A stretch of 53,797 nt of DNA from contig NZ_JAHFUW010000029.1 in NCBI RefSeq assembly GCF_023264855.1, positions 1 through 53,797 of the forward strand. The letters are read 5' to 3'. The position numbers and the translations under genes are program-made. Shown here one piece after another: positions 34,489 to 53,797 of this stretch. Within the stretch, counting starts at the first letter, position 1. Each line of letters starts with the position of its first letter. The stretch is from Herbiconiux sp. GTDB lineage: Bacteria; Actinomycetota; Actinomycetes; Actinomycetales; Microbacteriaceae. Under the pieces are notes generated by a model. The model was not told the DNA's origin. It ran no database searches and saw nothing but the letters and a program-made list of their open reading frames with translations.

Positions 34489-35808
34489 TTACCTCGTCAC
34501 TCCCGCCGGCCAAGCTCCCCGCGACTGCCGGTACTCCGTCGCCTCGGCGGCCTCAGTGAACTCCAGCAGGTTGCCCACCTTCTCTAGGAGCACCTCCCGC
34601 ACCTCACCTGGTGTGGCGAAGAAGAACTCCTTCCGGAAGTTCGCTTGATTCAGCGCTCGCGATGCGAAGTGCTTGTGAAGTTCGTTCTCGAGAGTCACGG
34701 CATCCTCCGAGAAGTACAGGGTGTGCACGTCGAATCGGAACGGCACGGATGCTCCGCTGAGCTCCGCAATCCGCTCCAGCGGGCGAAGTCGTCGGGTGAG
34801 ACCGATCTTCACTACCTGGTGTCCGAATGCGCCTTCATTCGAGATCACGTACACATAGCCGGCTCGAACATTCGCCGCCCTGAAGTCGTTCTCCACGATG
34901 GCTTCGTCGATGGCGGCGAGTCGGCGCAGGAGATCTTCATCCTGCTCGCCCTTCGCGGCCATGGCCTCGATCGCGTAGGCGATGTGAGCTCGCTCCTTGT
35001 CGAGCTTTGCGCGCTCTTCCTCCAGCTCCCGCCGGACCTTCTCTTCTTCCTTCAGCCGCGCACGCTCTTCGCGAGCGTCCTCTCGCTCCTGCTGTTTCTT
35101 CATCAGCCAGTCGGCCGTGAGTTCGATCTCCTCGATACGCAGCTCGTGAAAGGCATCGTCGATCCGCATCTCCATGAGTGCGCCGAGTCTCGCGATGGCT
35201 GTCCGCGACGCTTCGAGCCGTCGCTTCGCGGTGATGACGTTGCCGGCTCGGAGAGTGCGGAGGGCGTTGTCCGTCTCAGCGTTGTAGGCCCGCAGCATCA
35301 GCTTGCCGAGGTCGGAAGTCATCTTCCGGCCCTGCGCGAGCGAGTTGTTGAAGGTGAACAACTCGCTCTTCGCGATCGCTCGATCACTTTTGATCACGTC
35401 CGCGATGCGCGTTTCCAAGTCGGCAAGCCGCTCCTGGTAGGCCGCCGCTGACTCCAACGGATGGTGATAGCGATAGATGCCGACATCCTGCAGCACTCGC
35501 GCATCATCCAGTTCGATGCTCGCGTCGGGGGAGTCCGAGTTCGCGGCCCGTTGACGCAATGCAGCGTTCTCAGCTTCGAGGTACGCGATGCGGGCCGCGT
35601 ACGAGGAGGCGTCAGCCTCAGCGCGAACATCCTCGCGTTCGGTTCTGGCGGGTGGAGTGGGAACAGCGCTCGGCGCCGCATCGTCGATCCACAGCTGCCA
35701 GCCGTCGGGAGCCGGTGGCCAGGACGGATCGGGTGTCCACCCTGCAGGCGGTTGCCATCCGAGAGGAGGCTTGGGCCATCCGGGCGGGGGATTGAAGGCG
35801 ACAGGCAT
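34489..35808 (-). CDS. DUF4041/T5orf172-domain protein (GIY-YIG-like nuclease fold)
   Basis: A 439-residue protein with three parts. The N-terminus has Pro/Trp repeats (PPGWPKPPLGWQPPAGW). A long coiled coil runs from about 60 to 310, charged and rich in Glu/Arg, with a DUF4041-like segment (SDLGKLMLRAYNAETDNALRTL). The C-terminal T5orf172 domain is at about 315-410: AGYVYVISNEGAFGHQVVKIG, then ELSGASVPFRFDVHTLYFSEDAVTLENELHKHF and EFFFATPGEV. This domain is a relative of GIY-YIG nucleases, found in phage and mobile-element proteins. It lies five bases after the coiled-coil gene, so they are coupled. Function is unknown; a defence or mobile-element role is inference. Confidence 0.75.
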   Translation of the reverse strand: MPVAFNPPPGWPKPPLGWQPPAGWTPDPSWPPAPDGWQLWIDDAAPSAVPTPPARTEREDVRAEADASSYAARIAYLEAENAALRQRAANSDSPDASIELDDARVLQDVGIYRYHHPLESAAAYQERLADLETRIADVIKSDRAIAKSELFTFNNSLAQGRKMTSDLGKLMLRAYNAETDNALRTLRAGNVITAKRRLEASRTAIARLGALMEMRIDDAFHELRIEEIELTADWLMKKQQEREDAREERARLKEEEKVRRELEEERAKLDKERAHIAYAIEAMAAKGEQDEDLLRRLAAIDEAIVENDFRAANVRAGYVYVISNEGAFGHQVVKIGLTRRLRPLERIAELSGASVPFRFDVHTLYFSEDAVTLENELHKHFASRALNQANFRKEFFFATPGEVREVLLEKVGNLLEFTEAAEATEYRQSRGAWPAGVTR

Positions 35809-37470: not shown

Positions 37471-37642
37471 GATCGTCCGCCTCCCGTTCGCTAAGGCCGA
37501 GGTCGGCGTCTGGGCGCGAAGCGGCGACAAGCGCATCACCAACTGGCCGGTCGACTACATACTCGACGTAGTCGTCCGCGAGGCCCCCCCCGATAATGGT
37601 GCCCGGGTTTTACGAGACGAGCAGTTTGCCCCTAGACCATAA
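37457..37642 (+). pseudogene. DUF2075 helicase gene, fragment 1 (N-terminus)
   Basis: Reads SSEIVRLPFAKAEVGVWARSG, then DKRITNWPVDYILDVV. This is the start of the long DUF2075/GIY-YIG-type helicase normally coupled to MazG-like genes (overlap 14 bp here). The match ends near 37590, right after a run of nine C residues, and what follows is not homologous. The segment that should carry the GIY-YIG-like motif is absent. The next recognisable part of the same gene is at 38571. Confidence 0.65.
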
Positions 37643-38522
37643 TCGGGCCGCCGAGGTTCGTAAGCAGCTGCCGGACATCATCTCGGATATGGTCCGGATA
37701 TATGTCCCGACTCCAGGGGCGCATGAAGCCCGAGGAACTGGTCGCGCTGAACATCGGCTCCAACGACTCCAACGCATGATGACGACCGTTAGATACTGCA
37801 GCGGCCAGCCAAGTTACGAATTGCACAAGAGGGACGCCCTTCGTGCTGGAGTTGGCATCGTGATAGTTGAAGGTGCTTACAGGACTCCAATCGGCGGTGG
37901 GCGTGCCAACGGGTGCAAGCGAGATTCGCGAGCCGCTGAAGAACGCTTTGTTCGCTATCAGGAGAGCGTCCAATTCTTCGCGAGGGTGCGAGACCAGCGG
38001 CGGGCTGCTTTCCTCGGTCAGGTCAATGTAGAGCTCTCTCATCGCCGTGCCGAAGTCGTCGCTTGACTTGAATAAATCTGTGGAGTGTGAAAGCAGACCG
38101 AAGGGAAATGGGCCCCGTAGTGCCTCTTGGACGTTTTGCGGGGTGGCGCCAGCGACCTCAACGAGCAACTTCTTCTGTTGTATCGCTTCGATGATGTCCT
38201 TTTTTCGAAGGGTTAATTTGGATGAGAACGCGGCAGCCACACCGCTGGCCAATATTTCAGGCTCCGAGTGCAGATGTTGAGGATAGTCCGGCCTCAAGAG
38301 GATGACATCGACCTCGTTGGAGGTTCCTCCCGGCCCGACCACGTACTTGCGAGTGACGACGGGCCATCCGGGGCCCCATTGCTCTAAAAGGCCGGCCCAG
38401 GTCGCCTCACCTCCGTGCCCGGCTCGCTGTGAGTCGCCCGAAACGGCCTGCGCGTGTGCGTGATCGTAATCATCCTGAACACTTTGCGTGGCTCGGTCGA
38501 GGAGAGCCGAGAATTTGCTCAT
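37632..38522 (-). CDS. Cargo gene A: nuclease-like protein (DUF6602-like), antisense in the broken helicase gene
   Basis: A 296-residue protein. The region GHGGEATWAGLLEQWGPGWPVVTRKYV, then GTSNEVDVILLRPDYP and ASGVAAAFSSKLTLRKKDIIEA, resembles the DUF6602 nuclease-like family: an Asp in a DV-hydrophobic strand and a Lys after the next strand. The usual Glu of an E-x-K pair appears to be missing (FSSK). The ATG at 38522 is used. It fills the gap between fragments 1 and 2 of the DUF2075 gene, runs opposite to it and is less GC-rich. Family call is tentative; the position is seen directly. Confidence 0.55.
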   Translation of the reverse strand: MSKFSALLDRATQSVQDDYDHAHAQAVSGDSQRAGHGGEATWAGLLEQWGPGWPVVTRKYVVGPGGTSNEVDVILLRPDYPQHLHSEPEILASGVAAAFSSKLTLRKKDIIEAIQQKKLLVEVAGATPQNVQEALRGPFPFGLLSHSTDLFKSSDDFGTAMRELYIDLTEESSPPLVSHPREELDALLIANKAFFSGSRISLAPVGTPTADWSPVSTFNYHDANSSTKGVPLVQFVTWLAAAVSNGRHHALESLEPMFSATSSSGFMRPWSRDIYPDHIRDDVRQLLTNLGGPIMV

Positions 38523-42645: not shown

Positions 42646-43079
42646 ATTGAAAGTTCTGTGTCTTAGCCTAGATCGCGTAGTGCTATGGGTCGTGACCAAT
42701 CCCGACGTGATAGGCGCCGGGGACTGCTGTACGAAAAGATGACTCTGGCACTTATCCATCCAACGGGCCCCTGCGACTCTACGCCGGCGGCTAGAGCGTA
42801 GCTGCCGTGCACGAGTGGTGTGCTCAGTAGATCGTTGGAGCGGGCTCGAGCGCTGGGGTCCGCGCTGCAGCGGCGGTGAGCATCGTCCGCAAGGTCGCAG
42901 GCTCCAAGCAGGCCCGCAACAACGCGCTCCTCGCGACGATGACGTGCTGGACGCTGCGGGCGCGCTATTGTTGGCAGCCGCCACGCCTGTCACGCGTACT
43001 TGTGGATGGTGTCTGGGCGCCTCGGTACTCTGAGGGTGAACCATCTTCCTGGGAATCCGGGAAGCGACGAAGGAGCGCC
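42646..43079 (+). other. Non-coding stretch before the helicase operon
   Basis: About 434 bp. No gene has support on either strand. An open frame continues upstream of 43080 in the helicase frame to 42876, but the residues look unlike the family and the ribosome site is at 43080. It should hold the promoter of the helicase-methyltransferase operon; TACTCT near 43025 is the best -10-like element. I see no RNA gene. Confidence 0.4.
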
Positions 43080-46000
43080 GTGACCCGGATTTTCGACAAC
43101 ATCGAGCTTCGCCTCGGCGAGCACCTCCAGGCGACGCTGAACGACTTTGATCGGATGGATGTCGCGGTCGGGTACTTCAATCTTCGGGGCTGGAGCGAGT
43201 TCGATCAGATCGTCGCGGCCAGAGAGGCCTCGGGGGCGCCCGTTGCGCGGATCCTCATCGGAATGGTCTTCGCCGGACCCGAAGAAGAGACGCTCGACCA
43301 GCTTCAGGCGACCGTAGACGGGCAGCCGCGCCCTGATGCGGATGCGCAGATTTCGAAGGAGCGGAAGGCGCAGCTCCTCGACCATTTACGGGTGCAGCTG
43401 ATGCGAGGAGTTCCTACGGCCGCCGATCGCAAGACGCTCGCGTCCCTTCGCGAGCATCTGGAGGCCGGCAAGGTCGAGGTGCGGGTATTCACGCGTCGTC
43501 CGCTCCACGGCAAAACCTTCATCTTCCATCGCCATGATCTCAACTCGCCGATCATGGGATTCGTCGGCAGCAGCAACCTGACTGCGCCGGGGCTGAACTC
43601 GAACCTCGAACTCAACGTAGACGTGCCGGATTCGTTTGGTGGCGGCAAGGATCTTGCGGCGTGGTTCGAAGCTCGATGGAACGACCCGCACAGCCGAGTC
43701 GTCACTGCTGATTTGCTGGCGCTGCTTGATGAGTCGTGGGCTTCGGTGAAACCAAAGCCTCCCTACGAGGTGTTCCTCAAACTTTGTTACGACCTTTCGC
43801 GTGATGTTCGAGAAGGCCAGGACGAGTACTCCGTCCCGCTCGAGGTGCAGTCCGAACTTCTCGAGTACCAGGCAACGGCCGTGCGCACACTTGCGCGCAG
43901 GATCGTCACGCGCGGCGGCACCATGCTGGGCGATGTGGTCGGTCTCGGCAAGACAATTACTGCCGTCGCGGTCGCGCTGATGCTTCGCGAGGAGCACGGG
44001 TATCTTCCCCTGGTCGTCTGCCCGAAGAACTTAAAGCAGATGTGGGAGGACTACTTCGACGCCTACGAGGTTCCAGGACGTGTCGTCTCCTACACCGAGG
44101 CGCACAACGTGCTGCCGGCGATCAGTCGCTACCGGTTCGTCATCATCGATGAATCCCACACGCTCCGAAACGACAAGCGGCGTGACTATCAGGCCGTGCT
44201 GGAGTACATCGATCGGGTTGGGGCGAAGGCGCTGCTGCTGACGGCGACGCCGTATAACCGACGCTTCGAGGACGTGGCAAACCAGCTCGGACTCTTCATC
44301 CAGCCCGATGAGGATCTTGGCATCTCGCCGGTCAACGCGCTCGCGGCGGATCCGAGGCTCGCTGACCGCGTTGATGGCAAGGTCACCACGCTGCAGGCGT
44401 TCAAGCGATCCGAGGATGCGGACGACTGGAAGCGACTCATGAGCGAGCACCTGGTGCGGCGCACCAGGACGTTCATCAAGAACAACTACTCCGAGACTGA
44501 CGACGACGGATCGAAGTACCTCCGGTTCGCTGACGGCACCAAGTTCCGATTCCCCGACCGTGTTGCTCGTCCGATCGACCACCCGTTCGAGCACGGCGAT
44601 CCTGCCGCGCTGATGGTCAGCGATGAGACGCTCAACACCCTGCAAAACCTCATACTTCCGCGCTACTCGCTCACCGCGTACGTCGACGAGAAGCGCAAGT
44701 CCGAATGGTCGGTGGAGGACAAGGGGATCGTCGAAAACCTGCGTCGCGCGCGAGGTCAGGTGGCAGGCTTCGTGCGCACCACGCTGTATAAACGACTTTC
44801 GTCGGGTGGCTATGCGTTCACGCTTTCGCTACGGCGTCACGTCGCGCGGAACGAATTGTTCCTCTACGCGATCGATAGCGGCCTTCCGTTGCCGACCGGC
44901 ACTATCCAGGAGGCGGATCTCTTGGACGACGACGACATCATCGAACACGAGGTGGATGACATGGAGCGGCTTGGGGATGCGGCCGCGCAGCGCTATCAGG
45001 CGTTGGTCGATGCGGATCCTGCCTACGTGACGTGGATCCGTCCGGAACTGTTCACTCCGGGCCTAAGAGACGCACTGCGCGCCGATACCGAGGCGCTTGC
45101 CGCCCTCCTGGACGCGTACGGGCCGTGGGAAATCGGACGCGACTCTAAACTAGCCGCGCTTGCCAGGTTGATCGCGGACGAGCACCCAGGCGACAAGGTC
45201 CTGGTCTTCACGGAGTACAAAGACACCGCCAACTACGTCGCGACCGCCCTCCGTTCAATGGGGATCGATGCCGTGGATTCCGCAACAGGAGACGACGAAG
45301 ATCCCACTCAGCTCGCACGTCGCTTCTCTCCCCGTTCGAACAGGCTGCGCGGTAAGGGCGACGTCGAACGCGGGGGTGATGAGCTTCGTGTGCTTATCTC
45401 CACTGATGTCCTCAGCGAAGGACAGAACCTCCAGGACGCGCACATCGTCGTCAACTACGACTTGCCGTGGGCTATCGTCCGTCTGATTCAGCGCGCTGGT
45501 CGTGTCGACCGTGTTGGGCAAGAGTCTTCCGAAGTCCTGCTCTACTCGATCTTCCACGGATCTCTGAACAACGTCCTTTCGCTTCGTCAGCGCATCGCAG
45601 ACCGACTGCAGCAGAACGCGCAGGCCTTCGGCTCCGACGAGCAGTTCTTCGGCTCTGAGGACGAGGTTCGGGCGATCAACGACCTCTACAACGGCACCCT
45701 CGACGAGGCCGAGGACGTTGAGGACATCGACGCGGCGAGCCTGGCGTATCAGTACTGGAGTAACGCACTGGAGCAGACCCCGGATGCCGCAGAGCGTGCT
45801 CGTCGCCTGCCGGATCTGGTCGACGCGACCCGCGCAAAGCGTGTCACCGACATTGAACCGGGGGTCGGCTGCTACATCCGCACTGAGGCCGGCATCGACG
45901 GCTTTGGGTGGACTACTCCCGCCGGTGAAACTCGACTTCTGACAGGATTCGAGGCGCTCCGTGTCTTCGAGAGCAGCCCGGACGAACCCTCGGTGGAGCG

Positions 46001-46346
46001 GCTGCCGAACCAGGACGAGTTGATTACCGATCTCGTGCGTGGCCCTCTCGCCAACCCGATCGTCGCCGCGGGGCGTCTCCGAGGGGTTCGGCGACAGATC
46101 TGGAAGCGACTCGGCGAGAGCCTCTTCGATTTCGGGCCCGAGGCATCAGCAGCGCTTGATCTGCTCTACCAGCACCCGCTGACCAACGAAGCAGACCGAC
46201 GGCTTCGCAACGCCGTACGCAACGGCGCGTCGGATGACGAGCTTGCCAGCCGTGTCGCCGCATTGGCTCGGGAGGACAAGCTCGTCATCGAACGTCGATC
46301 GGGCAACGACTCCATTCGCATCGTGAGCACCATGGGAGTGAGTTAG
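43080..46346 (+). CDS. PLD-nuclease/SNF2-type helicase fusion
   Basis: A 1,088-residue protein. A phospholipase-D-like nuclease domain at about 1-200 has its HxK in LHGKTFIFHRHD and the rest of the motif in GFVGSSNLTAPGLNSN. The SNF2 helicase follows: GDVVGLGKTITAVAV (Walker A, about 285), IIDESHTLRND (DESH, about 355) and LLLTATPYNRR. The second RecA domain has VLVFTEYKDTANYVA and the final motif NYDLPWAIVRLIQRAGRVDR. GTG at 43080 follows GAAGGAG. Two bases separate it from the methyltransferase gene. The pair is likely a restriction-modification-like or DISARM-related defence unit; this is inference. Confidence 0.85.
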   Translation: MTRIFDNIELRLGEHLQATLNDFDRMDVAVGYFNLRGWSEFDQIVAAREASGAPVARILIGMVFAGPEEETLDQLQATVDGQPRPDADAQISKERKAQLLDHLRVQLMRGVPTAADRKTLASLREHLEAGKVEVRVFTRRPLHGKTFIFHRHDLNSPIMGFVGSSNLTAPGLNSNLELNVDVPDSFGGGKDLAAWFEARWNDPHSRVVTADLLALLDESWASVKPKPPYEVFLKLCYDLSRDVREGQDEYSVPLEVQSELLEYQATAVRTLARRIVTRGGTMLGDVVGLGKTITAVAVALMLREEHGYLPLVVCPKNLKQMWEDYFDAYEVPGRVVSYTEAHNVLPAISRYRFVIIDESHTLRNDKRRDYQAVLEYIDRVGAKALLLTATPYNRRFEDVANQLGLFIQPDEDLGISPVNALAADPRLADRVDGKVTTLQAFKRSEDADDWKRLMSEHLVRRTRTFIKNNYSETDDDGSKYLRFADGTKFRFPDRVARPIDHPFEHGDPAALMVSDETLNTLQNLILPRYSLTAYVDEKRKSEWSVEDKGIVENLRRARGQVAGFVRTTLYKRLSSGGYAFTLSLRRHVARNELFLYAIDSGLPLPTGTIQEADLLDDDDIIEHEVDDMERLGDAAAQRYQALVDADPAYVTWIRPELFTPGLRDALRADTEALAALLDAYGPWEIGRDSKLAALARLIADEHPGDKVLVFTEYKDTANYVATALRSMGIDAVDSATGDDEDPTQLARRFSPRSNRLRGKGDVERGGDELRVLISTDVLSEGQNLQDAHIVVNYDLPWAIVRLIQRAGRVDRVGQESSEVLLYSIFHGSLNNVLSLRQRIADRLQQNAQAFGSDEQFFGSEDEVRAINDLYNGTLDEAEDVEDIDAASLAYQYWSNALEQTPDAAERARRLPDLVDATRAKRVTDIEPGVGCYIRTEAGIDGFGWTTPAGETRLLTGFEALRVFESSPDEPSVERLPNQDELITDLVRGPLANPIVAAGRLRGVRRQIWKRLGESLFDFGPEASAALDLLYQHPLTNEADRRLRNAVRNGASDDELASRVAALAREDKLVIERRSGNDSIRIVSTMGVS

Positions 46347-46348
46347 CC

Positions 46349-49126
46349 GTGGGCAATTCCGAATTTCTGGATCTCGTCGATCGGCGGGACTTCCGAGACC
46401 TCTTCGTGGACCGCCTGGGGTGGAGCAACCCAGATCAGAGAGACTTCGAGGTGGCCACTGAGAGCGGCACGTACCGACTGACGCAGGTTGCTGGGTTCAA
46501 AGGCCTGCGCGTGTGGTTCCACGATGGAATGCCTTCGCGGTCGGAGCAGCGTCTGATCGACCAGACGATCGGTGCGAAGAATCTCGAGCGCCTCGTCATA
46601 TTTGCGGACGAGCAGAGCCAGGCATGGCGGTGGCCACGACGGGCGCAGATGGGAGGCGCCAACGCAAAGCTTGTCCTTCACGAGCGCCGAATCGGTGACA
46701 GCGACGCCCGACTTGTCCGCCAGCTTCAGGCCATCACGATCGGCTTCGACGAAGAACTGACGCTTGTCGATCTCCTCTCGCGGATGCGCGGAGCGTTTGA
46801 TCACGAAGCGGAAACCACCGCTGCCCAGGCCGCTCGACTCATGAACATGCTCTACGCCGAGCTCGAAACCTCCGGGTGGAACCAACACAACTCGACGTTG
46901 CTCCTTGCTCGGCTCCTCTTTCTTTACTTCGCCGACGACTCAGGCATGTGGAAGCACCCAGTCCGCCCCGACCAGTTCCAGGCCTTCCTTGTTGACAACA
47001 CCACGGCGGATACTTTGGCTGATGATCTGAGTGCACTGTTCGAGGCACTTAGCCAAGAGCGGCGCCGGCCTGGGCTGCCGGAAGTGGTCCAAGAGTTTCG
47101 ATACGTCAATGGCGGGCTATTCACTGACGAGTTCACCATGGGACCGCTCACTCATGCGTTCCGTACTGAACTGATCGATGCGGGCGACTTCGACTGGTCG
47201 GTCATCTCGCCGGCCATCTTCGGCTCAATGTTTCAGACGGTGAAAGACAAGAAGTCTCGGCGCCACGGCGGCGAGCACTACACGACTGAGGAGAGCATTC
47301 TTCGCACGATCGAGCCGCTGTTCCTCACTGAGTTCCGGCAACGCTTGGAAAGCAGTCGGAACGATCGCGGGCAACTCACAAAACTTCACAACGATCTCGG
47401 GCGAGTTCGAGTGCTCGACCCTGCGTGCGGATGTGGCAACTTCCTGATCGTTGCCTACCGCGAGCTTCGTGCGCTCGAACTCGACCTACTTCTTCGACAG
47501 CGTCAGCTTGACCTGCAAGACAAGGGCAAAGACTTTGCTCAGCTCTCGTTCGATGTCACCGGCCATCTCAAAGTCCGTCTCGATCACTTCTATGGCATCG
47601 AGATTGAGGAGTGGCCTGCCCGCATCGCCGAGACCGCGATGTTGCTTGTCGATCACCTCGCCAACCAGCGAATGGAACAGGACTTTGGGTATGCCCCCGA
47701 CCGCCTGCCCATTCGGATCGCGCCGACTATTCTCAAGGGGAATGCTCTCCGGGCGGATTGGCGCAAGCTGGTAGAACCTACGCCCGACGTCATCATTGTT
47801 GGCAACCCGCCGTTTATCGGCCAGTACACGAAGACCGCTGAGCAAACGGCCGACGTACGCAGAATCTGGGGAGCCCGCTACAACGGGTATCTAGACTACG
47901 TCACCTGCTGGTACGCGCTAGCGGCTGAATACTTCGGAGACTTGGCGGGGAGGTGGGCATTCGTCTCCACAAACTCGATATCTCAGGGCGAAGCCGCGGA
48001 GCACTTATGGCGTCCGATTTTGGAAGCGGGGTGGCGGTGTAGATTCGCGCATCGATCCTTCCAATGGGTAACTGAGGCGCCAGATGGCGCCGCGGTTCAC
48101 GTATCGATCATTGGCTATGACAAGCGGACGGTTCCGAAGGCGGTGCTGTGGACTTACCCCGAGGGAGGGAGAGGTGAAGGCACCCCGGCGGACGTTCCTA
48201 ACATCAATCCCTACCTCCTGCCCGCTTCAAACGTCTTCGTTTCAAGTTCGACTCGTCCTGTTGTTCCATGGCTACCGGCAGTGACTAAGGGCAGTCAACC
48301 AACTGATGACGGGAACTTCTTTGTCGAGGCCAGCCAACTTGCGCGGGTACGTGCTGACGGCGTAGCAGCGAAGTACCTTCGACAGTTCGTTGGCGCTAGG
48401 GAGCTGCTGCACGACATCGAGCGCTGGTGCATTTGGCTCGAAGCGATCGACGATGCCGAGATCGCTGCGAGCGAGTTCTTGACCGAGCGAGTAGCGGCCG
48501 TGCGTGAATTCCGCCTCAATAGCAAAAAGGCCGCAACCCGCGCAAAGGCCGCAACCCCGCATCTCTTCGATGAGAGGCGACAGCCGCGCACGAGCTATCT
48601 TGGCATTCCGCGCCATGTGGGTCAGACGCGGGAGTTCTTTACAGCAAAGCGACTACCGCCAGAGGTAATTTGCGGTGACGCCAATTTTATGGTTGAGGAC
48701 GCCGACGGGTTTGCGCTCGGTGTTCTGTCTTCATCAATGTTCATTCTCTGGATGCGCGGCGTTGGTGGACGGATTAAGTCCGACCTTCGATTCTCAAACA
48801 CGTTCGTGTACAACTCGTTCCCGCTGCCTCCCGTCAGCGAGCAGCGGCGACGCGCGTTGGTAAAAGCCGCGGCCCAGCTGGTTGCCGCGCGCGGGAGATA
48901 TAGCAACGAGTCGCTGGCGGATTTGTACGAAATTGGCCGAATACCCGAGCCTGTTCGTCAGGCTCACGCTGCAATTGATGCCGTCATCGACGCAGTGTTC
49001 GGCGTTCAGCCGGAGTCGACCACGGAGGCGCGCCAGCGACTCATGTTGAGGCGTTACTCGAAGCTGACACAGCAGGATCCGCCTGAAGGCGCACTTTTCG
49101 ACTTCGATGACTTCGTGAGCCCGTAG
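46349..49126 (+). CDS. Type IIG/MmeI-like N6-adenine DNA methyltransferase
   Basis: A 925-residue methyltransferase. Motif I is VLDPACGCGNFLIVAYREL (about residue 357), the catalytic motif IV is VGNPPFIGQY (NPPF, about residue 486), and a target-recognition-like region follows. The N-terminal 170 residues have RSEQRLIDQTIGAKNLERLVIFADEQ, a part that could be nuclease-like. NPPF or NPPY marks adenine-N6 activity. The start is GTG at 46349. With the PLD-SNF2 helicase upstream it probably marks self DNA, and the helicase partner acts on unmarked DNA. The order is helicase first, then methyltransferase. Confidence 0.83.
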   Translation: MGNSEFLDLVDRRDFRDLFVDRLGWSNPDQRDFEVATESGTYRLTQVAGFKGLRVWFHDGMPSRSEQRLIDQTIGAKNLERLVIFADEQSQAWRWPRRAQMGGANAKLVLHERRIGDSDARLVRQLQAITIGFDEELTLVDLLSRMRGAFDHEAETTAAQAARLMNMLYAELETSGWNQHNSTLLLARLLFLYFADDSGMWKHPVRPDQFQAFLVDNTTADTLADDLSALFEALSQERRRPGLPEVVQEFRYVNGGLFTDEFTMGPLTHAFRTELIDAGDFDWSVISPAIFGSMFQTVKDKKSRRHGGEHYTTEESILRTIEPLFLTEFRQRLESSRNDRGQLTKLHNDLGRVRVLDPACGCGNFLIVAYRELRALELDLLLRQRQLDLQDKGKDFAQLSFDVTGHLKVRLDHFYGIEIEEWPARIAETAMLLVDHLANQRMEQDFGYAPDRLPIRIAPTILKGNALRADWRKLVEPTPDVIIVGNPPFIGQYTKTAEQTADVRRIWGARYNGYLDYVTCWYALAAEYFGDLAGRWAFVSTNSISQGEAAEHLWRPILEAGWRCRFAHRSFQWVTEAPDGAAVHVSIIGYDKRTVPKAVLWTYPEGGRGEGTPADVPNINPYLLPASNVFVSSSTRPVVPWLPAVTKGSQPTDDGNFFVEASQLARVRADGVAAKYLRQFVGARELLHDIERWCIWLEAIDDAEIAASEFLTERVAAVREFRLNSKKAATRAKAATPHLFDERRQPRTSYLGIPRHVGQTREFFTAKRLPPEVICGDANFMVEDADGFALGVLSSSMFILWMRGVGGRIKSDLRFSNTFVYNSFPLPPVSEQRRRALVKAAAQLVAARGRYSNESLADLYEIGRIPEPVRQAHAAIDAVIDAVFGVQPESTTEARQRLMLRRYSKLTQQDPPEGALFDFDDFVSP

Positions 49127-49195
49127 CCTCCGACAGTTCCCGTTCGGTGAACCAGGAGCCGCAATGACACGCCAAGAGTGAAAGTGAGTGCGTAA

Positions 49196-49216
49196 TATAC
49201 TGACTAACGGCTAGTC
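49196..49216 (+). promoter_or_regulatory. Candidate promoter and dyad for the four-gene nuclease unit
   Basis: TATACT (49196-49201) is a good -10 element. GACTA and TAGTC (49202-49206 and 49212-49216) form exact inverted arms around ACGGC, just after it. A site overlapping the transcription start is typical of autorepression, and the second gene of the unit encodes an XRE-type DNA-binding domain. No -35 element is clear. The link is inference. Confidence 0.45.
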
Positions 49217-49223
49217 TGAGTTC

Positions 49224-50021
49224 ATGACCGCAGAAGATGAAGCCCTCGCCGCTCTCCAGGCATCCGCGCTCCTCGATGTCTTGAAGTGGGGAGCGCCGGT
49301 GTCGTTCGAGGCGACGGATCAGCTCTACGACGAAGACCAGGGCCACGATCAGGGCGTCGTCGGCTACCTCAATTTCAAGCACCTCCAGGATCTCATCGAT
49401 CGGGCGACCTCCAACGGACGGTTCAAGTTGGGCGAGGGACTCGACAGCCTCGGTGGAGACGTGCTCAAGCGCGGCATCACGCCGCAGGCGTTCAACGCGA
49501 TGCCGCACCTCGCGGCGGGCGTCGTTGTGCGTCGGGACTACAAGCAGTCTCCTGGCTGGGCGGTGGAGGGCTACCGGGTGCTGTTGCAGTCCTACCCCTT
49601 TGGCAAGGTCGACGACATCAAGTGGGTACAGCGTAGTGACGCGAAGAGGCGCGTCGCGGATCAGCTGTTCGTCGGCGACAACACGCTCTTCAGCGACGAA
49701 GAGTTCGGTCTCGAATCGATCCCGGGTATCCCGGACGACGACGACTTCTCCGGCGTGACGCTGATCGCGGCCCACGCCTTCAACCCGACCACCAAGCAGT
49801 TCGAGCTCTACATCGGCCAGAGCAAAAATCCGGAGCACGTAGACGACTCCTGCTGGCACTGGAAGAAGCTGCTGCTCTCCGGCGGTACCCCGACGGGCGG
49901 CACGGGCCTGCCAGTCGCGCCAACGATGCCGAGCGGTGGCGCTTCGACGGATGTCGAGGACGTGCCGGTGCGGATCAAGCGAACGGGCGCGGGCGAAGGG
50001 TCGGGCGCGGCGAATGGTTGA
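49224..50021 (+). CDS. Unknown protein, first gene of the ImmA/OLD/UvrD unit
   Basis: A 265-residue protein, not recognised. Residues about 5-35 are helical. GYLNFKHLQDLIDRATSNGRFKLGEG and VVVRRDYKQSPGWAVEGYRVLL suggest an alpha/beta fold. FNPTTKQFELYIGQSKNP near residue 190 is a beta hairpin. The last 50 residues are Gly/Pro-rich and look disordered. No membrane segment or cysteine pair is visible. ATG at 49224 has no strong ribosome site, but the promoter-like element is 23 bases before it. Its end overlaps the XRE-ImmA gene by 8 bp, so it belongs to the same unit. Confidence 0.6.
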   Translation: MTAEDEALAALQASALLDVLKWGAPVSFEATDQLYDEDQGHDQGVVGYLNFKHLQDLIDRATSNGRFKLGEGLDSLGGDVLKRGITPQAFNAMPHLAAGVVVRRDYKQSPGWAVEGYRVLLQSYPFGKVDDIKWVQRSDAKRRVADQLFVGDNTLFSDEEFGLESIPGIPDDDDFSGVTLIAAHAFNPTTKQFELYIGQSKNPEHVDDSCWHWKKLLLSGGTPTGGTGLPVAPTMPSGGASTDVEDVPVRIKRTGAGEGSGAANG

Positions 50022-51132
50022 GGCGCGTCGGCCGTCCCAGACGCTCGCCGCCGCAGCCTCGTTCTTCAACGGTGAGCGCCTCACCATGGCGCGTCAGCTC
50101 AAGGGGCTCAAGAAATCCCACCTCGCGGCGCTCATCGAGATGTCGCCGGCGTCCGTCACGGCCTGGGAGAGCGGCGCCAAGCAGCCCAATCGTGCGACGG
50201 TGGCCAAGCTTGCGCTAGCGCTTCAGGTCGAGCCGCAGTTCTTTGGGGGAGGAGCGCCGCCGAAGACAAACAAGCCGCACTTTCGCTCGCTCCGCTCGAC
50301 GCCCCAGATCGCTCAGGACGAGGCTGAAGCGTACGGCCGGTTCGTAGCTGAGATCGCGGGGATGCTGGAGAACGCCGTCGAGTTTCCAGAGGCGCTCTTG
50401 CCAGACCTCCCGGTCGACCCCGATGAGCGTTCGATGACACCCGAAGAGGCCGCACGCGAGGCGCGTGCCTTCTTCGGTGTCGCGCCGGGGCCGGTGCAGC
50501 ATGTCGTCCGTCTCGTCGAGCGCAGTGGTGTCGTGGTGGTGTTCAGCGAGCCTGGCGTGGCTGCGATCGATGCCTACTCACTGCATTCGGCGACGCGACC
50601 GATCATCGTCTTGAACCCCGTGAAGGACGACTACTACCGGCAGCGCTTCGACGTGGCCCACGAGCTCGGCCACCTGATCATGCACCACGACGCCGAGCCC
50701 GGCGGCAAGATCGCGGAGGAGCAGGCCAACCGGTTTGCATCTGACTTCCTGATGCCGGCCGAGGAGATCGCGCCATCCCTTCCGACTTCGACCGCGGGCA
50801 AGGCGTGGGCGCAGCTTGCAGAGCTCAAGGAGTATTGGGGCGTCAGTCTCGCGGCACTGCTGTATCGGGCTCGTGCGCTGGGGATCATGAGCGACATTTC
50901 CTACCGCAACGCAGTCATCCGCATGTCACAAAACGGTTGGCGCCGAGCGGAGCCGGGGCGGATTTCGTCGCTGGAGATGCCCTCGATGCTGCCGCGCGCG
51001 CGTGAGGTGCTCTTTGAGGCTGGGGTGGATGAGGCTGCATTCCTCGCTGGTTCGGGGCTACCTGTAGGGCTCTATGCCATCGCTGCGTCGCGCGTTCCGG
51101 CGACGGCCGCTCTGAATCAGGCGATGTCGTGA
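50014..51132 (+). CDS. XRE-type DNA-binding domain fused to ImmA/IrrE metallopeptidase
   Basis: A 372-residue protein. The helix-turn-helix is at about 20-75: LTMARQLKGLKKSHLAALIEMSPASVTAWESG and ANRATVAKLALALQV-type end. The peptidase motif HELGH is at about residue 216 (RFDVAHELGHLIMHH), with the third ligand Glu in EEQANRFASDFLMP. ImmA proteases cleave repressors of mobile elements, and IrrE cleaves DdrO after DNA damage. Here DNA binding and protease are in one chain. It overlaps the next gene as GTGA. It may be the regulator of this unit, or a toxin-like effector. Confidence 0.82.
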   Translation: MVEARRPSQTLAAAASFFNGERLTMARQLKGLKKSHLAALIEMSPASVTAWESGAKQPNRATVAKLALALQVEPQFFGGGAPPKTNKPHFRSLRSTPQIAQDEAEAYGRFVAEIAGMLENAVEFPEALLPDLPVDPDERSMTPEEAAREARAFFGVAPGPVQHVVRLVERSGVVVVFSEPGVAAIDAYSLHSATRPIIVLNPVKDDYYRQRFDVAHELGHLIMHHDAEPGGKIAEEQANRFASDFLMPAEEIAPSLPTSTAGKAWAQLAELKEYWGVSLAALLYRARALGIMSDISYRNAVIRMSQNGWRRAEPGRISSLEMPSMLPRAREVLFEAGVDEAAFLAGSGLPVGLYAIAASRVPATAALNQAMS

Positions 51133-52844
51133 GAGTTGCGAGAATCCGGATCCAGCGCTTCCGCGGCTTTGAGGATGTCGAGCTGGCGCTCCCCGCCGAT
51201 GTTGTCATTGCGGGGGAACCGCAGGCAGGCCGCAGTGACCTCGTTGAGGCGCTGCGGCGCGTGCTCGACCCGCGCAGCACGCGGGCGCGTGTCAATCCGC
51301 TCGACATCCACCGCCCGATCGGAGACGAAACCTTGACTGAGGTGGAGGTGACCCTCCTCAAGCTCGGGGCGCAGCTTGAGACGCTGCTCAGCGACAGCCT
51401 CGAAGCATTCGACCCTGAGGCTGCGACGCCCGCAGGGACGGGCGGCGGCGCGGGTGCCGTTCTCGGTGTCCGTCTCTGCTACCGCATCCGCTACGACCTC
51501 GATGCCGACAGTGGCGATCACTGGGTCGACTTCCCGGCGAGGAGCGACCCGGCGGCGAACTCATTCAAGCGCGTTGGCCGGATGGAGCGCGAAGCGTTGC
51601 CTGTGCAGTTCATCGATAGTGCGCCCGCTCTGCAGCTTCGCGCCGAGGGGGCACTTCGAACCCTGTTGGCCGCATCGGATTCGAGTGGACTCGACGATGC
51701 ACTCGCTGGACTGGATGACGGTGTGCGCTCAGCGACGGGTGACTTCGCGGGCGCATCCGTCGTGACGGACGTGCTCGATCAGGTACTCGACGCCGGTCCG
51801 AAGACACTTTTTGGTGTGGACGATCCCGGCGCAGTTGACTTCGTCGCGGATGACGGCTCGCTCGCAGCCCTTCTTCGCGCGCTGCAGCCTGCGCTGTCGC
51901 TCGATGCGGCAGGACCCTTGCCGATCCGTTCGCACGGGTCGACGATCCAGAATGTGTTCTCGGTGGCGGAAGCCATCGCGGCGGCGCGCGCGGCGGAGTC
52001 CGGCGTTGTCGTTATCGGTGATGACTTCGGCGATGGTCTGGATGCGTCGTCGTCCGAATACATGGCGAGCCTGCTGCACGCGACGGCGGGCCAGTCCATC
52101 CTCACGACGCGTCGCCCAGAAGTTGTCCGCGCCTTCAAGCCAGAAGAACTCATCCGCATGACACGCACCGATGGAGGTCGCGCGCAGCATCAGCTCCCTG
52201 ACGTAACGGACAAAGCCGCCCGTGTCACGCGTCGGCTCGTGCTCGACCAGCTCCTGGCCGCGCTGAGCGCACGTACGGTCGCGCTAGTCGAAGGCCCCCT
52301 CGACGTGGAGGGCTACGGCGCACTGGCGGCGAGGCTGTTCAGGAAGACGGGTGAGCGAAAGCACGGATTGGCAGCGAACGGCATCCGTTTGATCGCGCCA
52401 CCGGGTACTGACGGGGGTATCTCGCGGCTGCCGGCAATAGCTGAGGTTGCGCTGCAGCTTGGCTTCCATGTGCGTGCGATTGTCGACAACGACAAGCCCC
52501 GGCAAGAGGAGCCGGCCGTCGCCGCGCTGGAGGAGCTGACCGAGCAACTTGTAGTGCTTCCTGACCGCACAGCAGTTGAGGCGGCGCTCATTCGAGGAGT
52601 ACCGGGGGAGAACCTGCGGGAGGTCGTCGAGTCGCTGGCCACGCTCGGCATGCCTCCGCTGCCAGACGATCTCGCGGACGATGAGATCGCCGAACACCTG
52701 ATCTCCAAGAAGATCCTGAAGAAGCAGGGGCTCGGGCCCGCGTGGGTCGAGGCGCTCACGGTGAAGCCGCCGACTGCCCGCGCCGTGATCGAGGCGCTCT
52801 GCGTCGGTGAGCTTGGGCGCATCGACCTTCCTGCGCTCTTATGA
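51129..52844 (+). CDS. OLD-family-like ATPase/TOPRIM nuclease (GajA-like)
   Basis: A 571-residue protein. The N-terminus IQRFRGFEDVELALPADVVIAGEPQAGRSDLVEAL is an SMC/OLD-type ATPase start, but its Walker A reads GEPQAGRS, with Arg 35 where Lys is expected. Walker B-like is VVVIGDDFGDGLD, and the switch position reads LTTRRPE instead of TTH. A TOPRIM domain follows: VALVEGPLDVEGYGAL (Glu 388) and AIVDNDKP (DxD, 453-455), both intact. GajA of Gabija has this ATPase-TOPRIM layout and nicks DNA. ATGA couples it to the UvrD-like gene, as in gajA-gajB. Gabija-like is inferred; the degenerate ATPase is notable. Confidence 0.8.
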   Translation: MRVARIRIQRFRGFEDVELALPADVVIAGEPQAGRSDLVEALRRVLDPRSTRARVNPLDIHRPIGDETLTEVEVTLLKLGAQLETLLSDSLEAFDPEAATPAGTGGGAGAVLGVRLCYRIRYDLDADSGDHWVDFPARSDPAANSFKRVGRMEREALPVQFIDSAPALQLRAEGALRTLLAASDSSGLDDALAGLDDGVRSATGDFAGASVVTDVLDQVLDAGPKTLFGVDDPGAVDFVADDGSLAALLRALQPALSLDAAGPLPIRSHGSTIQNVFSVAEAIAAARAAESGVVVIGDDFGDGLDASSSEYMASLLHATAGQSILTTRRPEVVRAFKPEELIRMTRTDGGRAQHQLPDVTDKAARVTRRLVLDQLLAALSARTVALVEGPLDVEGYGALAARLFRKTGERKHGLAANGIRLIAPPGTDGGISRLPAIAEVALQLGFHVRAIVDNDKPRQEEPAVAALEELTEQLVVLPDRTAVEAALIRGVPGENLREVVESLATLGMPPLPDDLADDEIAEHLISKKILKKQGLGPAWVEALTVKPPTARAVIEALCVGELGRIDLPALL

Positions 52845-53692
52845 ACTGGGCAGCCCAGAACCCCGAGCAAGCTCAGGTCGTCGAGACAGAGGCAGAGCTC
52901 ACGGTTGTGCTCGGAGGCGCGGGGGTCGGCAAGACGACGAGCGCACTGGCGGCCGCAGCCGCGCACCTCGAACGGGTTCAGGATGCGAAGCCCCATGAAC
53001 GGGTGCTGTTCCTGTCGTTTTCTCGCGCGTCCGTCGCTCGGATCGCATCGGGGACGAGCGAGGTACTAGGGAAGAATGCCGATCGTGTCGATGTGATGAC
53101 CTTCCACTCCCTTGCTTTCTCGATCGTCCGGAGGTTCGGGAGCATGATCGGCCGCGGAGACGTGGTGCTCGTCAGCCCCGCTAGGGAAAAGCTCGGCCTG
53201 GCGGGCAATGAGATCGGCTACGGGAGTCTTCTTCCGTTAGCGCTCGAGATCGCACGAGCGTCGCCCGCGGTCGCGGCGCATCTTCGCTCGCGCTGGGGCC
53301 TGGTGATCGTGGACGAATTTCAAGACATCGGCGATGCGCAGCAGCAACTGCTCGAGCTGATCACCCCGAGCAGCCGCATGATTTTGCTCGGCGATCCCAA
53401 TCAATGCATCTACACATTCCTCGTCGCGGATGGCGTCCGCGTCGAACGAATCAATGAGGCGTGTGCTGCCGCCGGACAGGAACACACGATCGTGCTCCCG
53501 GAGACGTCATTCCGTGACCCCTCCGGCGTCATCCCGGCAGTGGCGAACGCCATTCGAACGCGTCAGTTCGATGCGCCAGCGCTGGCGAGTGCCATCGAAG
53601 GCGGCCGATTGGTCGTCCGGAGCGGGATTGCACTCAGCGACGAGGCGTCAAGCGTGGCACAGATCGTCACCGAACTCAGTAGTGCCCCGTAG
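52841..53692 (+). CDS. UvrD-like helicase (GajB-like), cut off after the first domain
   Basis: 283 residues with the SF1 motifs in order: GGAGVGKTTSAL (Walker A), LFLSFSRASVARI, MTFHSLAFSIVRR, LVIVDEFQDIGDAQQQLLEL (motif II) and ILLGDPNQCIYTFL (motif III). LPETSFRD-PSGVIPAVANAI starts motif IV. UvrD/GajB proteins need a second RecA domain with motifs V and VI, and these are missing. The stop is at 53690-53692, in or next to an apparent insertion-sequence end. Full-length relatives are about 500 residues or more. ATGA overlap with the OLD-like gene. Confidence 0.82.
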   Translation: MNWAAQNPEQAQVVETEAELTVVLGGAGVGKTTSALAAAAAHLERVQDAKPHERVLFLSFSRASVARIASGTSEVLGKNADRVDVMTFHSLAFSIVRRFGSMIGRGDVVLVSPAREKLGLAGNEIGYGSLLPLALEIARASPAVAAHLRSRWGLVIVDEFQDIGDAQQQLLELITPSSRMILLGDPNQCIYTFLVADGVRVERINEACAAAGQEHTIVLPETSFRDPSGVIPAVANAIRTRQFDAPALASAIEGGRLVVRSGIALSDEASSVAQIVTELSSAP

Positions 53693-53797
53693 AGTGGTGT
53701 AACGAACCCCGAGTAACAACGGCCCCACTGAAAGAACAGCGTGGCCACCGGGGACACCTTCGAGAAGCCTTCTAACTCTCACTCGAAAGGGCATCAC
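53693..53797. mobile_element. Probable left end of an insertion sequence
   Basis: After the helicase frame stops, GAGTGGTGTAACGAACC starts a sequence unlike the coding DNA before it. Such an end is reminiscent of IS256-type terminal repeats. The segment has no gene of its own and ends with AAGGGCATCAC, placed like the leader of a transposase gene beyond the window. The right end and the transposase are not visible, so the family is a guess. Confidence 0.35.

What the first reader, a model, noticed from the sequence alone, without database searches (positions are those of the whole stretch)
49224..53692. Four-gene unit: unknown protein, XRE-ImmA protease, GajA-like TOPRIM nuclease, UvrD-like helicase
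The four genes are all on one strand and joined by overlaps of 8, 4 and 4 bp. The last two match the Gabija layout, but Gabija is described as two genes. The extra ImmA protease with its own DNA-binding domain and a 265-residue unknown protein suggest an extended, possibly DNA-damage- or phage-triggered variant. The family calls are from motifs; the joint function is inference.
Basis: partly seen in the sequence, partly recalled or inferred. Interest (0 to 1): 0.85.

Follow-up and report, generated by a model that had tools for sequence, protein, structure and literature searches.

The report
Swappable control pair heading Gabija-like operon
Two of the four genes form a small mobile pair, related to a known bacterial toxin-antitoxin family, that is joined in front of different anti-virus gene sets in different bacteria; here the set resembles Gabija, and its helicase gene has been cut in two by a jumping element.

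Summary
The four overlapping genes are real but are not a dedicated four-gene Gabija. Genes 1-2 form their own pair: gene 2 adjoins gene 1 in 32 of 33 loci examined. Gene 2 is an XRE-ImmA protein of the RosmerTA antitoxin family (PADLOC RmrA, E 5.7e-104). Gene 1 is an unknown family; its link to the RosmerTA toxin RmrT is suggestive only. The pair behaves as a cassette with its own ~60-bp upstream element: homology between the window and Microbacterium locus L009 begins 60 bp before gene 1 and stops about 40 bp before gene 2's stop. What follows differs: Gabija-like genes here and in two relatives, SIR2-HerA, or PADLOC candidates M36A and S53. In 11 of 31 testable loci such genes follow closely on the same strand, 7 with the same 4-bp overlap; the other 20 lack this. 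Seven Gabija-like loci examined have no such pair nearby. In this genome an insertion sequence splits the helicase gene. I read genes 1-2 as a RosmerTA-related control or guard module for neighbouring defence genes, working like the Cap controllers. The cassette structure is well supported; the control function is inferred.

The parts
49164..49223 (+). Conserved upstream element (probable promoter/operator) that travels with the pair
   Evidence: Mean pairwise identity over 18 close loci is 0.36 and 0.34 in the two 20-column blocks before it and 0.70, 0.57, 0.51 within it. Window-L009 nucleotide homology begins at 49164. TACTG lies 25-28 bp before the gene-1 start in 29 of 33 loci (300 base shuffles: mean 0.87, max 4). 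Not palindromic.
49224..50021 (+). Gene 1, 265 aa, unknown family; possibly a divergent RmrT-type partner
   Evidence: No hit at E<=0.01 in Pfam, PADLOC, NCBIfam or PHROGs, nor in PADLOC and Pfam at E<=10. Gene 2 adjoins it in 32 of 33 loci. AlphaFold mean pLDDT 76.5; no PDB fold match at E<=0.001, best E 0.75.
50014..51132 (+). Gene 2, 372 aa, XRE-HTH plus ImmA/IrrE (M78) metalloprotease, RmrA family
   Evidence: PF06114 2.3e-23, HTH_3 7e-9; PADLOC RmrA 5.7e-104; HExxH at residue 216, present in 32 of 32 gene-2 proteins aligned.
51129..52844 (+). Gene 3, 571 aa, GajA-like ATPase-TOPRIM protein (Walker-A Lys replaced by Arg; TOPRIM E388, D453, D455 kept)
   Evidence: PADLOC GajA 1.1e-21; the five PDB sequences at E<0.01 are all GajA, and the alignment puts Arg35 against the GajA GKT lysine; 7 of 7 aligned relatives have Arg. 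TOPRIM motif assignment is my reading.
52841..53692 (+). Gene 4, N-terminal part of a GajB/UvrD-like helicase, interrupted by an insertion sequence
   Evidence: PADLOC GajB 9.7e-40; the rest of the gene is on contig C7; intact 539-aa homologue in L004.
53680..53797 (.). End of an insertion sequence that breaks gene 4 and the assembly
   Evidence: Same sequence at the ends of contigs C55 and C89; shared terminal repeat and a 10-bp repeated target at C79 and C7.
42876..49126 (+). Upstream neighbours: SNF2/PLD helicase (42876-46346) and MmeI-like type IIG restriction-methylation protein (46349-49126)
   Evidence: Pfam and PADLOC hits; the same two genes lie directly upstream of the pair in L003 and L009.

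Best explanation
Genes 1-2 with the ~60-bp element before them are a mobile two-gene module of the RosmerTA (RmrT/RmrA) kind, placed in front of interchangeable defence genes; here the passenger is a Gabija-like nuclease/helicase pair. Shown: the pair, its cassette borders, its conserved upstream element, the different passengers, and the tight same-strand packing in some loci. Inferred: gene 2 binds the upstream element with its XRE domain and keeps the operon low. On infection or DNA damage its ImmA protease acts (on itself or on gene 1), freeing gene 1 and raising expression of the passenger. The pair then works as a controller or guard of the adjacent immune genes, like CapH+CapP or CapK+CapS. 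In this strain the helicase is broken, so the passenger is probably inactive here.
For: Gene 2 adjoins gene 1 in 32 of 33 loci. Passengers differ: Gabija-like (window, L001, L004), PDC-M36A cluster (L003, L006, L007, L010, L012), SIR2-HerA (L009, L041), PDC-S53 (L021). Seven of the 11 overlap gene 2 by exactly 4 bp and one by 1 bp. Window, L003 and L009 share the upstream SNF2/IIG genes and genes 1-2 but carry three different passengers. Window homology to L003 and L009 ends 32 and 42 bp before the gene-2 stop codon. The upstream element is conserved with a sharp border, TACTG in 29 of 33. HExxH is intact in 32 of 32 gene-2 proteins. RmrT relatives on plasmids lie before R-M genes in 3 of the 12 opened of 29 found. 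CapK+CapS shows the same layout, in front of immune operons in 348 of 443 and just downstream of R-M in 88 of 443 (PMC13373217, section 7 read).
Against: 20 of 31 testable loci have no identified defence gene directly behind the pair, so the pair must have a role without a passenger. No palindromic operator: the dyad score is below the shuffle median. Gene 1 has no PADLOC RmrT hit even at E<=10, and the profile link to RmrT falls from 68% to 6.7% when more RmrT sequences are added. Three phage partner proteins of RmrA-like genes show no profile similarity to gene 1. The end of gene 2 also varies between loci with the same passenger (window-L004: 48% in the last 60 bp, 72-77% in the next 180). 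Operons in defence islands can arise without regulation. Nothing here measures binding, cleavage or toxicity.
Confidence: 0.5

Rival explanations
1. Addiction/guard toxin-antitoxin: gene 1 is a toxin held by gene 2; co-transcription ties the toxin to the defence genes, so their loss or inhibition kills or stalls the cell. No transcriptional control of the passenger is needed.
For: Gene 2 is RmrA by PADLOC. RosmerTA pairs are described as toxin-antitoxin defence systems with diverse toxins, one tested there (PMC10440598, passages seen). Many pairs lack a passenger. Gene order and close packing match TA pairs.
Against: No toxin homology shown for gene 1; the RmrT link is weak. In PD-lambda-2 the Xre-peptidase was the toxic member (PMC9519451, passage), so which of the two is the toxin is open.
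Confidence: 0.25
2. Independent neighbours: a self-sufficient RosmerTA-type defence pair that merely shares a promoter with whichever defence genes land behind it in a defence island.
For: 20 of 31 pairs have no identified defence gene directly behind; the gene 3-4 pair also occurs without genes 1-2.
Against: The same 4-bp stop/start overlap appears with two different passenger families, and homology between loci with different passengers ends near the end of gene 2 in both comparisons made.
Confidence: 0.2
3. A dedicated four-gene Gabija variant in which genes 1-2 are essential parts of the nuclease/helicase machine.
For: Same four-gene order in L001 and L004; Gabija-like genes of other kinds near the pair in L005 and L013 and a gene-3 relative in pieces in L045.
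Against: Each half occurs without the other and the pair precedes other systems.
Confidence: 0.05

Closest known systems
RosmerTA (RmrT/RmrA)
   Same: Gene 2 matches RmrA (E 5.7e-104). Same order: a ~200-290 aa protein, then XRE-ImmA, usually with a small overlap or gap.
   Different: Gene 1 hits no RmrT model. The paper seen (PMC10440598, passages) treats RosmerTA as a two-gene toxin-antitoxin system; here it heads passenger operons.
Gabija (GajA/GajB)
   Same: Genes 3-4: ATPase-TOPRIM followed by UvrD-like helicase with a 4-bp overlap, GajA and GajB models hit.
   Different: Weak GajA score (75 bits, against 563 bits for the L005 protein on the same model PDLC04168). Walker-A Lys is Arg in 7 of 7 relatives. 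Helicase split by an insertion sequence here.
Cap controllers (CapH+CapP, CapK+CapS, CapW)
   Same: Small regulator genes directly in front of varied immune operons, sometimes just downstream of R-M (PMC13373217). PADLOC capP and capH models hit gene 2 weakly (2.1e-16, 2.1e-4).
   Different: HTH and protease are fused in one protein and paired with an unknown gene 1; regulation not tested.
PD-lambda-2
   Same: Upstream small protein plus Xre-peptidase fusion in a defence locus (PMC9519451, passage).
   Different: HigB-like first gene; third gene is related to a P4 phage antitoxin, not a nuclease/helicase pair.

Membership tests
RosmerTA | XRE-ImmA antitoxin RmrA | tested here: met
   PADLOC RmrA 5.7e-104; HExxH in 32 of 32.
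RosmerTA | Adjacent RmrT toxin recognised by family model | tested here: not met
   Gene 1: 0 PADLOC hits at E<=10, while 5 of the 9 other XRE-ImmA partner proteins scanned hit RmrT models, 4 strongly.
RosmerTA | Partner homologous to RmrT by profile comparison | tested here: inconclusive
   hhalign 68%, score 39.6 with 4 RmrT (max 21.0 of 40 column shuffles); 6.7%, score 26.3 with 16 RmrT and relatives (max 22.4 of 100 shuffles).
RosmerTA | Toxicity neutralised by the antitoxin | not testable with these tools
   Needs an expression assay.
Gabija | GajA-type ATPase-TOPRIM layout | tested here: met
   GajA model 1.1e-21 over residues 1-506; TOPRIM acids conserved, but Walker-A Lys is Arg in 7 of 7. 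Structure prediction failed (pLDDT 35), so the fold was not compared.
Gabija | Complete GajB UvrD-like helicase directly after GajA | tested here: inconclusive
   Split by an insertion sequence in this genome; complete 539-aa form in L004.
Gabija | GajA-GajB complex, sequence-specific DNA cleavage | not testable with these tools
   Biochemistry needed.
Cap controllers | Located directly in front of diverse immune operons | tested here: met
   Four passenger types in 11 of 31 testable loci; 20 of 31 without.
Cap controllers | Represses the operon and responds to DNA damage | not testable with these tools
   Reporter assay needed.

The most novel reading that the evidence does not exclude
[quoted passage not shown] The family here is a newly recognised, mainly actinobacterial branch with its own partner protein and upstream element, exchanging Gabija-like, SIR2-HerA and other effectors behind it.
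Probability: 0.35. Interest if true: 0.8.

Novelty: new variant of a known kind. Interest (0 to 1): 0.6.

Why it matters
How defence systems are switched on is much less known than what they do. A cassette that keeps its upstream element and two genes while the nuclease genes behind it change would be a ready-made, testable controller for Gabija-like and SIR2-HerA systems. It would also recast RosmerTA pairs, now counted as stand-alone toxin-antitoxin defences, as possible switches for their neighbours.

Tried and rejected
A palindromic operator in the conserved upstream element: rejected, best dyad score 0.353 against a shuffle median of 0.359. Further copies of the element in the window: two patterns made from it, with up to 3 mismatches, found only its own site. 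Phage carriage of gene 1: no match in the phage collection at E 1e-5, no confirmed relative in viral contigs; the RmrT alignment likewise gave none there. Gene 1 against three phage partner genes of RmrA-like proteins: no profile similarity. PDB sequence hits of gene 1 (CD2, E 0.03-0.07): taken as chance. Fold match for gene 1: none at E<=0.001; 58 of its 265 residues have pLDDT under 50, which may hide one. Structure of gene 3: model useless, pLDDT 35 with 5 sequences. A plain assembly error as cause of the short helicase: rejected in favour of an insertion sequence. Not tested: whether the M36A, SIR2-HerA and S53 passengers also occur without the pair, and whether the association with defence genes exceeds that of random genes in the same islands.

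In print: nine literature searches showed in their listings no paper describing RosmerTA-type pairs as heads of other defence operons. The library holds only openly licensed papers. I read passages of four papers and one whole section of one of them, so this is weak evidence of absence.

Rows left out of counts: in the passenger count 2 of 33 loci were dropped (L028, contig ends inside gene 2; L048, no gene 2). In L001 gene 2 and gene 4 match in two frames, in L014 gene 2 in several frames. Only representatives were scanned by PADLOC: M36A in L003, SIR2 and HerA in L009, HerA in L041, S53 in L021; the other members rest on BLAST clustering. The ten neighbours of passenger-less pairs scanned were my choice.
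Full report
WHAT IS THERE. Gene 2 carries an XRE helix-turn-helix and an ImmA/M78 protease domain and is PADLOC RmrA at E 5.7e-104. Genes 3 and 4 hit GajA (1.1e-21) and GajB (9.7e-40). Gene 1 hits nothing at E<=0.01 in four libraries. Gene 4 is incomplete. From base 53680 the sequence is a repeat also found at the ends of contigs C55 and C89. The C-terminal part of the helicase lies at C7:8778-9572, 112 bases from that contig's end. Both junctions carry the same terminal repeat by eye, and the 10 bases before the repeat recur on the C7 side. An insertion sequence has split the gene; an intact 539-aa copy exists in L004.

GENES 1-2 ARE A PAIR. A scan of genome contigs with gene 1 gave 15 loci, and gene 2 adjoins gene 1 in 15 of 15, in two or more frames in L001 and L014. 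Plasmids gave 4 records, gene 2 adjacent in 4 of 4. Samples of 398 family and 394 class genomes gave 7 genomes each besides the window's own; gene 2 is adjacent in 13 of these 14 (the miss is L036, the same place as L048). One of the 14 is the L014 genome again. With the window this makes 33 distinct loci, 32 with gene 2. The pair is rare but conserved, with gene 1 down to about 27-30% identity. HExxH is present in 32 of 32 gene-2 proteins.

GENES 3-4 ARE NOT TIED TO IT. Gene 3 and gene 4 relatives follow the pair in L001 and L004 only among the 15 loci. In L005 a GajA (PADLOC 1.7e-169) starts about 950 bp downstream of gene 2. In L013 a Gabija-like pair lies upstream (BLAST only), and in L045 a gene-3 relative in pieces lies upstream on the other strand. 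Gene 3 also occurs without the pair: seven stretches of 12-18 kb around gene-3 relatives (three plasmids and four places in genomes G600, G258 and G409) hold neither gene 1 nor gene 2 by tblastn at E 1e-3, nor gene 1 by profile. The gene 3 family keeps the TOPRIM acids but has Arg in place of the Walker-A Lys in 7 of 7 sequences aligned (aligned to GajA).

WHAT FOLLOWS THE PAIR. Of 31 loci with a readable downstream side (33 less L028, where the contig ends, and L048, without gene 2), annotated or candidate defence genes follow closely on the same strand in 11. These are: Gabija-like genes in the window, L001 and L004; a cluster whose member L003 is PADLOC PDC-M36A in L003, L006, L007, L010 and L012; SIR2-HerA in L009 and L041; PDC-S53 in L021. 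Seven start with a 4-bp overlap, L021 with a 1-bp overlap, L012 at 18 bp and L009 at 24 bp. In L041 a DUF2188 gene starts 27 bp behind gene 2 and SIR2 follows it, 282 bp behind gene 2. The other 20 show no identified defence gene directly behind; a few have other small or unrelated genes there (L014 DUF3223, L022 DUF2188, L046 an esterase). Of ten larger neighbours I picked from such loci, three had any PADLOC hit at 1e-5. The window, L003 and L009 share the SNF2/PLD helicase and the type IIG gene upstream (58-89% protein identity) and genes 1-2, but carry three different passengers.

CASSETTE BORDERS AND UPSTREAM ELEMENT. Nucleotide homology between the window and L009 runs from 49164, 60 bp before gene 1, to 51090; that with L003 stops at 51100; the gene 2 stop is at 51132. 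As a comparison, L004, with the same passenger, is 48% identical to the window in the last 60 bp of gene 2 but 72-77% in the 180 bp behind, so the gene 2 end is variable in itself. In 18 close loci the last ~60 bp before gene 1 are conserved (mean pairwise identity 0.70, 0.57 and 0.51 per 20 columns) while the 40 columns before stand at 0.36 and 0.34. TACTG lies 25-28 bp before the start in 29 of 33 loci; 300 base shuffles gave a mean of 0.87 and at most 4. The element is not significantly palindromic, and two patterns made from it have no second site in the window.

RELATION TO ROSMERTA. PMC10440598 (passages) describes RosmerTA as diverse RmrT toxins paired with RmrA, an ImmA-domain antitoxin. 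More distant gene-2 homologues have an upstream partner that scores as RmrT in L087, L088, L090 and L091 (E 5.4e-31 or better) and weaker in L089 (4e-12); four others scanned and gene 1 itself score with none. The gene 1 profile against the first four gave 68% (score 39.6; best of 40 column shuffles 21.0), but against 16 RmrT and relatives only 6.7% (26.3; best of 100 shuffles 22.4). Both align the same C-terminal ~75 residues. I call this suggestive. Relatives of one RmrT are on 29 plasmid records. Of the 12 opened, 12 have an XRE or ImmA gene as the next annotated gene, and 3 have restriction-modification genes close behind: Methylocaldum (after a DUF2188 gene), Methylocystis and Mesorhizobium. 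The passenger habit may thus be more general.

HOW IT PROBABLY WORKS. Structure prediction of gene 1 was fair (mean pLDDT 76.5) with no PDB match at E<=0.001. CapK+CapS in PMC13373217 (passages and section 7 read) is the best model: a two-gene controller in front of varied immune operons in 348 of 443 cases and just behind R-M in 88 of 443. The window shows the same arrangement, R-M-like genes upstream and immune genes downstream, with an HTH and a protease, separate in CapH and CapP, fused in one protein. I therefore favour a controller or guard role over a plain bystander, while noting that 20 of 31 pairs lack a direct passenger, which the toxin-antitoxin and bystander rivals explain better. 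My nine searches, in a library of openly licensed papers, listed no experiment on this branch.

VERDICT. The cassette structure is firm; function and the identity of gene 1 are open.

Noticed in passing
window 42876-49126: SNF2/PLD helicase plus MmeI-like type IIG protein as an adjacent pair, also found together in L003 and L009: a possible restriction-type system of its own.
   Followed up: partly
window 31001-53797: GC drops from about 0.70 to 0.57-0.66 near 31 kb, with DUF4041/T5orf172 (34489-35808) and DUF6602 (37632-38522) proteins: looks like an acquired defence island.
   Followed up: no
L022:9935-10171, L041:10423-10659, L125:5756-6001: Small DUF2188 genes directly behind the XRE-ImmA gene in three loci; PMC13373217 reports YegP-type genes behind CapK+CapS in 57 of 443. 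Whether the two are related was not tested.
   Followed up: partly
window 51213-51236 (gene 3 residues 29-36): Walker-A Lys is Arg in all 7 aligned members of the gene 3 family, which suggests altered ATP handling compared with GajA.
   Followed up: no
L124-L127, upstream of the RmrT gene: Some RmrT-type genes have palindrome-like sequences just upstream (for example CTTCTTGTTTTTCT with its mirror), seen by eye; could be RmrA operators.
   Followed up: no
L001 and L014: Gene 2 is in more than one frame in both, and gene 4 also in L001, so these copies may be decayed or carry sequencing errors.
   Followed up: no
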